From Bryobacterales bacterium (lineage in GTDB: Bacteria > Acidobacteriota > Terriglobia > Bryobacterales > Bryobacteraceae), in the NCBI GenBank assembly GCA_003167255.1, contig PMTR01000148.1, positions 62,001 to 126,000 of the forward strand: a DNA stretch of 64,000 nucleotides, in the 5' to 3' direction. Below, one piece after another: positions 2,191 through 21,546 of the stretch (its first letter is position 1; each line of letters begins with the position of its first letter). Below the pieces are notes generated by a model. That model was not told the origin of the DNA. It worked only from the letters and a program-made list of their open reading frames with translations, and made no database searches. A program made the translations under genes and the position numbers.

Positions 2191-2332
2191 GAGAAGTCAG
2201 AAGACAGGAGTCAGAAGACAGAATAACCCCGCACGAAGCGCATTCCGACTCCTGTGTGGCCCCGCAGGGGCCATTCTGACTCCTGACTCCTGACTTCCAA
2301 ATCCCGAAGGGATTTCAAGGGCGCAGCCCTTG
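2191..2332. repeat. Inverted repeat with GTCAGAAGACAGGAGTCAG arms and two small hairpins
   Basis: Arms at about 2191-2223 and 2273-2298 are near-perfect inverted copies built from GAAGTCAG/CAGGAGTCAG units. Within the loop is a GGCCCC-GCAGG-GGCC dyad. Immediately after come two perfect hairpins: AAATCCC-GAA-GGGATTT (2299-2315) and AAGGGC-GCA-GCCCTT (2318-2332). The last one encodes the final residues of the next gene on the minus strand. It could terminate transcription from both sides, but no clear T-run follows. Confidence 0.75.
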
Positions 2333-3670
2333 CTCCCTAATTCTCAGGCCCACTTCTCTTCCGGCCGGCACTTCCACCGCCAGGATGCCCGCGCGATCCG
2401 AATCCGCCTCGTACATTTCTTCATCGTCGACTTCCACTTGATACGTGTGGCCGGGATCGAGGCCCACCAGGTAGACGGCGCCGCCCGGGTCCACCGTCAC
2501 GCGGAACTTCCGCGAGGTGCGGGCAAAGCACACCGCTGCCGGTCCGAGCAGCACTGGCGCGGGCGAGCGAGCCCCGTCGACGGCCCTCACGTGCCCGTCT
2601 TCGAAGACCTGCATCACGCCCCGGAAAAAGCCGAACCAGGTCGCGGAATCTTCCCAACTCGACCGCGCGAATAGTTCGCTGGAGCCGGCGCCGTGCCAGG
2701 CCACCGGCGCGTGGTAGTAGCTTAGACCGGGCTGATAGGGATTGGCCCACAGGAACTCGTACGGCGTGGCGAACGTGCTGCGCATCAGAAAGCGGTCGTG
2801 CATCAGCCAACCCTGCAACATCTGGCTCTCCAGGGCGTTGGTGTCGAAGGCCACCATGGCCATGTCGGCGGCGCGCGAAACCGCCGCCAGGCGCAAGTCG
2901 GGCTCGTCGATCCGCGGCTCCGCTCCGATGTAGTAATCGTTCTCCGGCGCCGGGAACACCGCCGGGTAGTAGCTGAGCAGGTGCGCGAGGGGATAATCTT
3001 TGAAAAACGCCCGCGCCGATTCGCGCAGATCGAGGTTGGTGTTGTCGCGAATCACGTGGAGCAGTTCGTAAAGATCGTAGGCGTCGTCGCGCGGCACCAT
3101 TTCGCGGCCTGCCGTGAGCGCCGGCGCCATCCGGCCTTCCCACCAGCCGTGAACCGCGCGTTCCAGTTCGCGCCGCGGCGCGTCCGGCACGTGATCGAAG
3201 AGAGCCACCGCCGCCAGCACGCGCGACCGCACCGCCGGCACGCTCTCATCGGAAGCCGTCTGGGTCATTCCCTTGACCATCCGCGCGGTGAGGTCGCGCT
3301 TCTGCGCTTCGCTGAGCAGATCCTGGCACCAGTCGAATACCAGGGCTTGCTGGCGCAGATCGGCGCCCGCGCCAAGAGCCCAGGCGATGGCCGCGCGGCC
3401 CGCATCGGCGTCCTCCGCCACCTGGTAGTAGAGGGCTTGTGCCAGGCCCGGCTCCGGCATGGGCGCGTGGCCCGCCATCAGCGTGAAGAACTGCTGCCAC
3501 CGCATCGAAGTCCGCTCGCGTTCGCGCCGCAGGAGCCGTAGCCGCGCCGGGCGCAGCAACAGGCGGGGATGAACGGTCGAGACCACCACGGGCTCGCTCG
3601 AGACGGGCGTCTGGGCCGCTGCCATCGCCGCGCACCACAGCGCAACACCGATGCCCAGTCTTGTTTTCAT
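2315..3670 (-). CDS. secreted protein, HPRL-type N-terminus (heparinase/alginate-lyase-like?)
   Basis: Predicted 451-residue exported protein. I placed the start at ATG 3670 because it gives a standard signal peptide (MKTRLGIGVALWCAAMAAAQ, cut after AQ) with AGGA upstream. Longer in-frame starts exist. After the signal, HPRLLLRPARLRLLR resembles the opening of heparinase II/III and alginate-lyase-like proteins. The middle is helix-rich and Trp/Tyr-rich, and the C-terminal ~100 residues look like a beta-sandwich. I see no secure catalytic motif, so a polysaccharide lyase role is only suggested. The last six residues are encoded by a small hairpin repeat. Confidence 0.6.
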   Translation of the reverse strand: MKTRLGIGVALWCAAMAAAQTPVSSEPVVVSTVHPRLLLRPARLRLLRRERERTSMRWQQFFTLMAGHAPMPEPGLAQALYYQVAEDADAGRAAIAWALGAGADLRQQALVFDWCQDLLSEAQKRDLTARMVKGMTQTASDESVPAVRSRVLAAVALFDHVPDAPRRELERAVHGWWEGRMAPALTAGREMVPRDDAYDLYELLHVIRDNTNLDLRESARAFFKDYPLAHLLSYYPAVFPAPENDYYIGAEPRIDEPDLRLAAVSRAADMAMVAFDTNALESQMLQGWLMHDRFLMRSTFATPYEFLWANPYQPGLSYYHAPVAWHGAGSSELFARSSWEDSATWFGFFRGVMQVFEDGHVRAVDGARSPAPVLLGPAAVCFARTSRKFRVTVDPGGAVYLVGLDPGHTYQVEVDDEEMYEADSDRAGILAVEVPAGREVGLRIREQGLRP

Positions 3671-3772
3671 CTGTCCTGATTGTGTCATAGCGACACACGG
3701 GCCGCCCAACCTTCCCCGCACCGGCGCCCCGCCTCTTCTGCAAAATACTGAAATTAAATCGTTCTAAAAAGA

Positions 3773-3801
3773 TTGACACATGGAGGTCTGATTGCTATTC
3801 A
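3773..3801 (+). promoter_or_regulatory. sigma-70-type promoter of the candidate small RNA
   Basis: TTGACA at 3773-3778 matches the -35 consensus exactly. A 17-base spacer leads to TATTCA at 3796-3801 as a weak -10. Transcription would start near 3808. No plausible coding sequence follows, only the structured region ending at 3964. Confidence 0.5.
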
Positions 3802-3807
3802 TAGAGC

Positions 3808-3964
3808 TGAATTGGCGAAGTAACCTCTCAAAACCTGCCCTCTGCTGCAACCGGCAGGCGGACGAAGAGTGGGCCGAAGAAGACAGCGTGCTTGCGGGAG
3901 CCGATGTTTGCGGTAGTTTTAGCTCACGATTCTCCCCGTGTTAGTTGCTGCAGAGGGGTTTTTT
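3808..3964 (+). ncRNA. candidate structured small RNA (6S-like architecture)
   Basis: This intergenic stretch has promoter-to-terminator layout. Bases 3838-3851 pair with 3944-3957 in a 14-position stem with one mismatch, directly followed by six T residues at 3959-3964. An inner stem (CGGGAG near 3895-3900 with CTCCCCG near 3932-3938) closes an apical loop. The 5' strand can also fold locally (CTGCC 3836-3840 region with GGCAG 3853-3857), which would compete with the closing stem. A ~157-nt RNA with closing stem, open bubble and inner stem resembles 6S RNA, but I recognise no diagnostic sequence. It could instead be an unrelated small RNA or a spurious fold. Confidence 0.4.
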
Positions 3965-4324
3965 GCCGAACGGTTTCGATCTCTCCGGGGGATCACGGGT
4001 AGCGGAGTGTGTCTGGTGTTTTCTGGTGTGGGAAAGAGGACGCGGACCTGGCCAGGAATCAACCGATTTTAGTTTCGATCAGATAGCCCGACGCCGGATC
4101 CCAGCCCAAACCTGGGCGAGCCGCATCGGATTGAGTCCCGAAGGTCTTGGGGCCGGTCCGGTGCGGTTTTTCTTTGTCGCCGGCCGTTATTTTTACCGCA
4201 GAGACGGGGAGAAAACAGAGGAATGAATGAGCCCTTCGTTTCTCCTGGTCTTCTCCGCGCCTCAGCGTCTCCGCGGTGAACTCAGATGTACGAATGGAGA
4301 CGCGACCGTCGGAAGTCGGGAGAC
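3965..4324. other. gene-free stretch with repeat copies
   Basis: No credible gene. One weak + strand open frame (3945-4226) lacks a ribosome binding site and runs into a repeat. A GCCCA-AACC-TGGGC hairpin lies near 4108-4122. Bases 4193-4281 carry an inverted pair of the GAGACGC repeat also found at 806-1075. Confidence 0.6.
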
Positions 4325-4618
4325 CTAATAGCTAAGGGTCCCGGTGCGCGGCGCTTCGTCCCGATTGGGCAGGTACAGAGTCTTGCAGTGCTCGCAACGG
4401 TAAATCTCAGCGTCCTTCCCGTATTTTTGTTTGACCTCGTCGCCGAAGAAAAACCAGCGCTTCAAATGGCCGGCGCAGAGTTTTCCCTTGGCGTCTTTTT
4501 CGCTGCAAGCGCGCATCCGCGGCGCCCGCCGCTTCACCTTGGTGCCGTCGCTGAGTGTGTCGACCAGTTCGGCCACCGGCATGGGTTGGTCCGACACCGC
4601 GTATTTCGGGTTCGCCAT
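4325..4618 (-). CDS. small zinc-ribbon-like protein
   Basis: A 97-residue cytoplasmic protein with Cys38 and Cys48 in the middle and a CEHC pair at residues 74-77, an arrangement typical of a single structural zinc site. It ends in a short acidic/proline tail. I do not know its function. It may bind nucleic acid or a protein partner, as many stand-alone zinc ribbons do. The ATG at 4618 is preceded 12 bases upstream by TATACT, so the transcript could have a very short leader. It is divergent from mdh and shares an 90-bp intergenic region with it. Confidence 0.6.
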   Translation of the reverse strand: MANPKYAVSDQPMPVAELVDTLSDGTKVKRRAPRMRACSEKDAKGKLCAGHLKRWFFFGDEVKQKYGKDAEIYRCEHCKTLYLPNRDEAPRTGTLSY

Positions 4619-21359: not shown

Positions 21360-21409
21360 TGGTGGCCAGGGACGGACTTGAACCGCCGCCGCCAGCCTTT
21401 TCAGGGCTG
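21360..21409 (-). pseudogene. tRNA-Phe 3' half (attachment-site scar)
   Basis: Read on the minus strand, this is the 3' part of a tRNA. It has an anticodon stem-loop CAGCC-CTGAAAA-GGCTG (anticodon GAA, Phe), a variable region, a T stem-loop GGCGG-TTCAAGT-CCGTC, the acceptor strand CCTGGCC, discriminator A and an encoded CCA ending at 21360. The sequence upstream (21410-21440) does not form a D arm or a matching acceptor strand, so the gene is incomplete. Integrating elements often leave such copies. Confidence 0.75.
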
Positions 21410-21546
21410 TATTCTACGATGAATTCTGATATGCCCCGTCACGCCAGGAGCGCGCCAACTGACCGTAAAATCGTAGATCCCAACCGTAGATGTGGTCCCT
21501 GCCAGCCCTTGCCAGCGAAGCCCAAAGTCTGTTCAACTGCCCGGTT

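What the first reader, a model, noticed from the sequence alone, without database searches (positions are those of the whole stretch)
3773..3964. Candidate small RNA with promoter, long closing stem and T-tract
An exact TTGACA promoter box, a 14-position long-range stem (one mismatch) and six T directly after it delimit a ~157-nt transcript with no coding potential. The fold can switch with a local 5' hairpin that hides the closing strand. The architecture resembles 6S RNA, but no family sequence is recognisable, so it may be a diverged 6S or an undescribed RNA.
Basis: partly seen in the sequence, partly recalled or inferred. Interest (0 to 1): 0.6.

Follow-up and report, generated by a model that had tools for sequence, protein, structure and literature searches.

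The report
Sigma-54-controlled small RNA of soil Acidobacteria
The stretch is a real, previously uncatalogued small RNA gene, found next to the same gene in nearly all sampled genomes of one family of soil bacteria (Bryobacteraceae); it folds into one long hairpin and appears to be switched on by a nitrogen/stress-type sigma factor (sigma-54) through a distant enhancer, and it is not 6S RNA.

Summary
In detail: a 17-bp-spaced TTGACA box, a 14-position closing stem and a T-tract delimit a ~158-nt RNA (3807-3964, +). It is far beyond chance. A covariance model finds it in 82 of 88 Bryobacteraceae genomes tested and essentially nowhere else in Acidobacteriota. The rod structure covaries strongly (231 double-changed cells versus 75 +/- 9 shuffled). 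No Rfam 15 family matches.

The 6S reading fails: a separate 6S RNA gene exists in the same genome and in 20 of 41 genomes searched, no 6S score is obtained here, and there is no 6S-type central bubble. The proposed 5' switch hairpin is not clearly supported.

The main new point is the promoter. 87 of 88 carry a 17-bp palindrome, TGTGTC-N5-GACACA, centred near -118 or displaced by about one or two helical turns: an enhancer signature. The gene is divergent to one conserved secreted-protein gene and has no co-directional partner.

Best reading: a stand-alone, sigma-54/enhancer-activated regulatory RNA, organised like glmY, probably acting by base pairing. Targets are unknown.

The parts
3681..3697 (.). 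17-bp palindrome TGTGTCATAGCGACACA, putative enhancer (bEBP binding site) centred at -118
   Evidence: >=10 of 12 arm positions in 87 of 88 homologs, centred near -118 or about -108/-97 (helical steps); best shuffled match 10 of 12 in 1 of 88; one match in the window, 0.07 expected
3773..3778 (+). TTGACA, sigma-70-type -35 box (window's clade only)
   Evidence: TTGAC with correct spacing in 32 of 90 homologs
3781..3797 (+). sigma-54 promoter: -24 TGG (GG 3782-3783), N10, -12 TTGCTA (GC 3794-3795)
   Evidence: GG-N10-GC at this place in 88 of 90 homologs; 5.5 expected by shuffling; other spacings at most 18
3793..3801 (+). extended -10 (TGC) plus TATTCA, overlapping the -12 element, 17 bp from TTGACA
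   Evidence: sequence; conserved in the TTGAC clade
3807..3964 (+). small RNA gene, about 158 nt, transcription start predicted at 3807-3809
   Evidence: both promoters predict the same start; homologs 149-167 nt from the leader; model R1 matches 3831-3965, 117 bits
3808..3821 (+). conserved mostly unpaired 5' leader (GAAUUGRYGAAGU), candidate base-pairing seed
   Evidence: positions 1-6 at 92-98% identity, mean unpaired probability of the first 12 nt 0.69
3833..3837 (+). nearly invariant unpaired ACCUG before the closing stem
   Evidence: listing; mean unpaired probability 0.65
3838..3851 (+). 5' arm of closing stem P1 (CCCUCUG nearly invariant)
3854..3882 (+). 5' strand of the middle helices P2-P3 (covarying)
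   Evidence: inner part of helix 1 and helices 2 and 3, changes on both sides at most pairs
3883..3909 (+). apical hairpin P4, core CGUGCUUGCGGGAGCC (3887-3902) nearly invariant
   Evidence: helix 4; conserved core
3919..3943 (+). 3' strand of the middle helices P3-P2
3944..3957 (+). 3' arm of closing stem P1 (CAGAGGG nearly invariant)
3959..3964 (+). T-tract; with the rod it forms the intrinsic terminator
   Evidence: 5-7 T at this place in homologs
2315..3721 (-). divergent neighbour, ~468-aa secreted-type protein (longest frame; real start probably near 3690 or inside)
   Evidence: homolog in the same place and orientation in 91 of 100 loci; no Pfam or PDB sequence match

Best explanation
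This is a free-standing regulatory small RNA gene of the Bryobacteraceae, not known to Rfam. An enhancer-binding protein (bEBP) on the palindrome near -118 would loop to RNA polymerase holding sigma-54 at -24/-12 and start a ~158-nt transcript; in the window's clade a sigma-70 promoter overlaps the same start and may give basal transcription, as at glmY. The transcript folds into one long rod whose base plus U-tract terminates it. The 5' leader stays mostly single-stranded and most likely pairs with target mRNAs (probably with Hfq, which the genome encodes), while the nearly invariant base and apical hairpin of the rod are probably protein contact sites. Shown by sequence: RNA gene, structure, conservation, sigma-54 element, palindrome. 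Inferred: transcription itself, enhancer function, Hfq use, seed, targets.
For: Family-wide presence (82 of 88) with strong covariation; same neighbour divergent in 91 of 100 loci, and no conserved co-directional gene downstream in the 27 contexts examined; sigma-54 element in 88 of 90 while the bases around it in the non-TTGAC clades are near random; palindrome in 87 of 88 at about -118/-108/-97; rpoN in all 20 family genomes searched (interrupted in the window's own genome at an NN assembly gap); Hfq present; leader conserved and mostly unpaired. glmY is the published precedent for overlapping sigma-54/sigma-70 promoters driven by a bEBP (PMC7073468; QseF site TGTCN10GACA in PMC8745638).
Against: No transcript data exist here. 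No target was found: the 12-mer complementary to the ACCUGCCCUCUG arm occurs outside the RNA gene only at about chance level, and the complement of the leader is also found in genomes that lack the RNA. Near-invariance of two helices hints at protein binding rather than pairing. The palindrome lies at the start of the divergent gene, so it could be that gene's operator.
Confidence: 0.6

Rival explanations
1. Protein-binding or decoy RNA: the rod is recognised by a protein (for example the RapZ homolog encoded just downstream of rpoN and hpf, or another dsRNA-binding regulator) and titrates it, as GlmY titrates RapZ; base pairing is secondary.
For: The outer 7 bp of P1 and the apical P4 core are nearly invariant although they are helices, which structure alone does not demand; promoter layout is glmY-like; a RapZ homolog with both domains lies in the rpoN-hpf-rapZ cluster.
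Against: RapZ is widespread in bacteria without GlmY/GlmZ (own knowledge); no sequence or Rfam similarity to GlmY/GlmZ; no binding data.
Confidence: 0.25
2. 6S-type RNA that binds RNA polymerase (a diverged or second 6S).
For: Long closing stem, size, stand-alone gene.
Against: Separate canonical 6S gene in the genome and in 20 of 41 genomes searched; no 6S score at E <= 10; the middle of the rod is covarying helix rather than a conserved open bubble; sigma-54/enhancer control.
Confidence: 0.03
3. Cis element: leader, attenuator or riboswitch of a downstream gene, or an element of the divergent gene.
For: It ends in a terminator and sits beside a conserved divergent gene.
Against: No conserved co-directional gene downstream; in the window the next + gene (malate dehydrogenase, 4709) is more than 700 nt away behind a gene on the - strand; the neighbour is transcribed away from it.
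Confidence: 0.06
4. The palindrome belongs to the divergent gene (repressor site at its start) and the RNA is sigma-54 controlled through an unseen site. This concerns the enhancer only and is compatible with the sRNA reading.
For: The palindrome overlaps the start region of that gene.
Against: Its distance from the RNA start is about -118 or shifted by about 10-bp steps to -108 and -97, as expected for looping to the RNA promoter.
Confidence: 0.15

Closest known systems
GlmY/GlmZ of Enterobacterales (RF00128, RF00083)
   Same: Stand-alone sRNA; sigma-54 promoter with (in a clade) a sigma-70 promoter overlapping at the same start; upstream bEBP-type palindrome with TGTC...GACA arms; RapZ and Hfq encoded in the genome.
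   Different: No sequence or structure match; palindrome spacing is TGTC-N5-GACA, not TGTC-N10-GACA; single rod instead of several stem-loops; no known glmS link; different phylum.
Qrr and CrcZ sRNAs (sigma-54-dependent)
   Same: sRNA genes activated by a bEBP through sigma-54 (own knowledge).
   Different: No match in the Rfam search; different structure.
6S RNA (RF00013)
   Same: Size class, long closing stem, stand-alone.
   Different: No model match, no central bubble; a true 6S is encoded elsewhere in the genome.
Acido-1, Acido-Lenti-1 and the unlisted Solibacter-1 motif (Weinberg 2010, PMC2864571)
   Same: RNA candidates from Acidobacteria; Solibacter-1 comes from the same family.
   Different: The first two are in Rfam and do not match. 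Solibacter-1 has no Rfam accession in the paper's table and its alignment could not be read here, so identity is not excluded.

Membership tests
6S RNA | Match to RF00013 covariance model | tested here: not met
   No hit at E <= 10 in 3700-4330; none at gathering score in the window
6S RNA | Large conserved central bubble mimicking an open promoter | tested here: not met
   Middle part is covarying helices P2/P3 with modest internal loops
6S RNA | It is the genome's 6S locus (no other 6S) | tested here: not met
   6S candidate at G000:C93:18802-19001, matches in 20 of 41 genomes
6S RNA | RNA polymerase binding and pRNA synthesis | not testable with these tools
   needs biochemistry
sigma-54-dependent gene | -24 GG / -12 GC element with 10 bp between | tested here: met
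   88 of 90 homologs
sigma-54-dependent gene | Upstream activator site, usually about 80-200 bp upstream | tested here: met
   Palindrome near -118 in 87 of 88, with shifts of about 10 bp; binding itself untested
sigma-54-dependent gene | RpoN in the genome | tested here: met
   All 20 family genomes searched; own copy interrupted at an NN gap
GlmY/GlmZ | Match to RF00128/RF00083 | tested here: not met
GlmY/GlmZ | Overlapping sigma-54/sigma-70 promoters | tested here: met
   32 of 90 homologs, including the window
GlmY/GlmZ | QseF/GlrR site TGTC-N10-GACA | tested here: not met
   Arms fit but spacing is 5 (consensus from PMC8745638)
GlmY/GlmZ | RapZ binding and effect on glmS | not testable with these tools
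   RapZ is encoded; glmS was not seen in the DNA held
CsrA-sequestering RNA | Excess of ANGGA motifs | tested here: not met
   0.54 per RNA versus 0.57 in shuffles
Hfq-dependent trans-acting sRNA | Terminator U-tract, exposed conserved seed, Hfq in genome | tested here: inconclusive
   U5-U7 tail, conserved mostly unpaired leader, Hfq present; binding and targets untested
Bacterial SRP RNA | Genome's SRP locus | tested here: not met
   SRP RNA found elsewhere, 75.4 bits

The most novel reading that the evidence does not exclude
Probability: 0.2. Interest if true: 0.75.

Novelty: new member of a known kind. Interest (0 to 1): 0.6.

Why it matters
Regulatory RNAs of Acidobacteriota, among the commonest soil bacteria, are hardly known. 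A family-wide RNA with a consensus structure, a predicted start site, a sigma-54 promoter and a defined candidate enhancer gives a directly testable entry into both sRNA and sigma-54 regulation there, and a covariance model would let it be annotated in soil metatranscriptomes.

Tried and rejected
6S and SRP identity (separate genes found). Rfam at gathering and relaxed thresholds: nothing over the locus. CsrA sponge: no motif excess. Perfect-complement targets of ACCUGCCCUCUG and of the leader: only the RNA gene itself or chance-like hits; the leader complement is also common in genomes without the RNA. Weak model hits outside the family: the one read out, in G581, lies in a coding sequence that reads like mutM; short hits to the apical hairpin alone have E-values expected by chance. 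Other enhancer copies in 2 Mb of G156: one near-match without a convincing promoter. PDB and Pfam for the divergent protein: no match. Paper searches for sRNAs or sigma-54-driven RNAs in Acidobacteria: none describing this RNA. No RNA-seq was available.

Full report
OBSERVATION. Folded alone the RNA is only slightly more stable than shuffles (z -1.70), so the case had to be made by comparison.

CONSERVATION. blastn of the locus hits 32 of 61 genomes. A covariance model (R1, 133 positions, 39 pairs) built from 16 homologs finds the RNA in 62 of 67 members of the window's family in a class-wide sample (a 63rd, G320, matches only 18 positions and is not counted) and in 20 of 21 further members not in that sample, that is 82 of 88. 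One of two tested genomes of a sister family has it (G039). Tested genomes of the other sister family and of other families and classes have none beyond chance. Named records show that the family is Bryobacteraceae (Acidobacteriota). Nearly all genomes have a single copy; G036 clearly has two.

STRUCTURE. Homologs fold into one long rod: closing stem P1, helices P2 and P3, and an apical hairpin P4. On 92 distinct sequences 89.3% of cells pair, 24 of 39 pairs have changes on both sides, and 231 cells are double-changed against 75 +/- 9 after shuffling; slid partners give 42-50% paired. That alignment was fitted to the model, but the smaller unfitted one gives the same answer. Three blocks hardly vary: the leader GAAUUG..., ACCUGCCCUCUG with its partner CAGAGGG, and the apical core CGUGCUUGCGGGAGCC. 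Structure alone does not require invariant helices, so these are probably recognised in sequence (inference).

NOT 6S. The same genome has a separate 6S RNA (39.9 bits, below the curated cut-off of 46.4 but aligned over the whole model; relatives reach 59 and 49 bits) and a separate SRP RNA. The locus has no 6S score at E <= 10 and lacks the open central bubble.

PROMOTER. Aligning upstream sequence showed that TTGAC with correct spacing is present in only 32 of 90 homologs, whereas GG-N10-GC, the sigma-54 -24/-12 signature, is present in 88 of 90, 12-15 bp before the GAAUUG leader; shuffles give 5.5 and other spacings at most 18. In the 56 homologs without TTGAC most bases around GG and GC are near random and the consensus reads TGGC-N8/9-TTGCTA. 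In the window the sigma-70 and sigma-54 elements overlap and predict the same start, 3807-3809. rpoN was found in all 20 family genomes searched; the broken look of the window genome's own copy sits at two N in the assembly.

ENHANCER. Further up, 87 of 88 homologs carry the palindrome TGTGTC-N5-GACACA with at least 10 of 12 arm positions; shuffles reach 10 once. Its centre lies near -118 in most, and at about -108 or -97 in others, i.e. shifted by roughly one or two helical turns; one lies at -134. It occurs once in the 64-kb window (0.07 expected), and in 2 Mb of relative G156 there is one near-match without a convincing promoter. This is what a binding site of a sigma-54 activator looks like, and suggests a small regulon. 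The caveat is that it overlaps the start region of the divergent gene and could serve that gene too.

NEIGHBOURHOOD. A ~470-aa secreted-type protein gene is divergent to the RNA in 91 of 100 loci, while the genes beyond it change. Downstream genes vary and are often convergent. The RNA is therefore most simply a stand-alone transcript, not a leader.

MECHANISM. The best-supported account is a sigma-54/enhancer-activated regulatory sRNA. For base pairing speak the conserved leader at the very 5' end, mostly unpaired (0.69), the U-tail and the presence of Hfq. For protein binding speak the nearly invariant helices; RapZ, encoded with hpf behind rpoN, is a natural candidate because GlmY, which has the same overlapping promoter design (PMC7073468, PMC8745638), acts on RapZ. 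Perfect-complement searches gave no target. CsrA sequestration is not supported although two CsrA genes are present.

NOVELTY. No Rfam family and no paper found describes it; the one unresolved overlap is the 'Solibacter-1' motif listed without Rfam accession in PMC2864571, whose alignment could not be read. It is a new RNA family of a known kind, with an unusually clear regulatory region.

Noticed in passing
window 2315-3721 (-): Conserved ~470-aa secreted-type protein divergent to the RNA in nearly all loci; no Pfam or PDB sequence match, though the C-terminal 'LFVRSSWDDDA.WFG' pattern recalls heparinase II/III-like folds (from memory).
   Followed up: partly
L210 (G000:C55:29000-33500), around contig positions 30915-30916: rpoN of the window's genome lacks part of its DNA-binding domain at an NN gap; the other family genomes searched are intact, so probably an assembly gap.
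   Followed up: yes
L031 / L053 / L054 / L055: Bryobacteraceae 6S RNAs score mostly below the RF00013 cut-off and would be missed by routine annotation.
   Followed up: partly
G038, G040 (genus g38, sister family): No RpoN DNA-binding domain found in these two genomes, while other genera of the same sister family have it.
   Followed up: no
window 21371-21425 (-): Partial tRNA-like Rfam match (31.5 bits, model 9-63) not called by ARAGORN; perhaps a tRNA remnant.
   Followed up: no
L111: A record labelled Planctomycetota (Centralia_MAG_388) carries this Bryobacteraceae RNA; probably a mis-binned or mislabelled contig.
   Followed up: no
G036:C78:3669-3812: Second, diverged copy of the RNA (72 bits) in one genome; possible paralog.
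   Followed up: no
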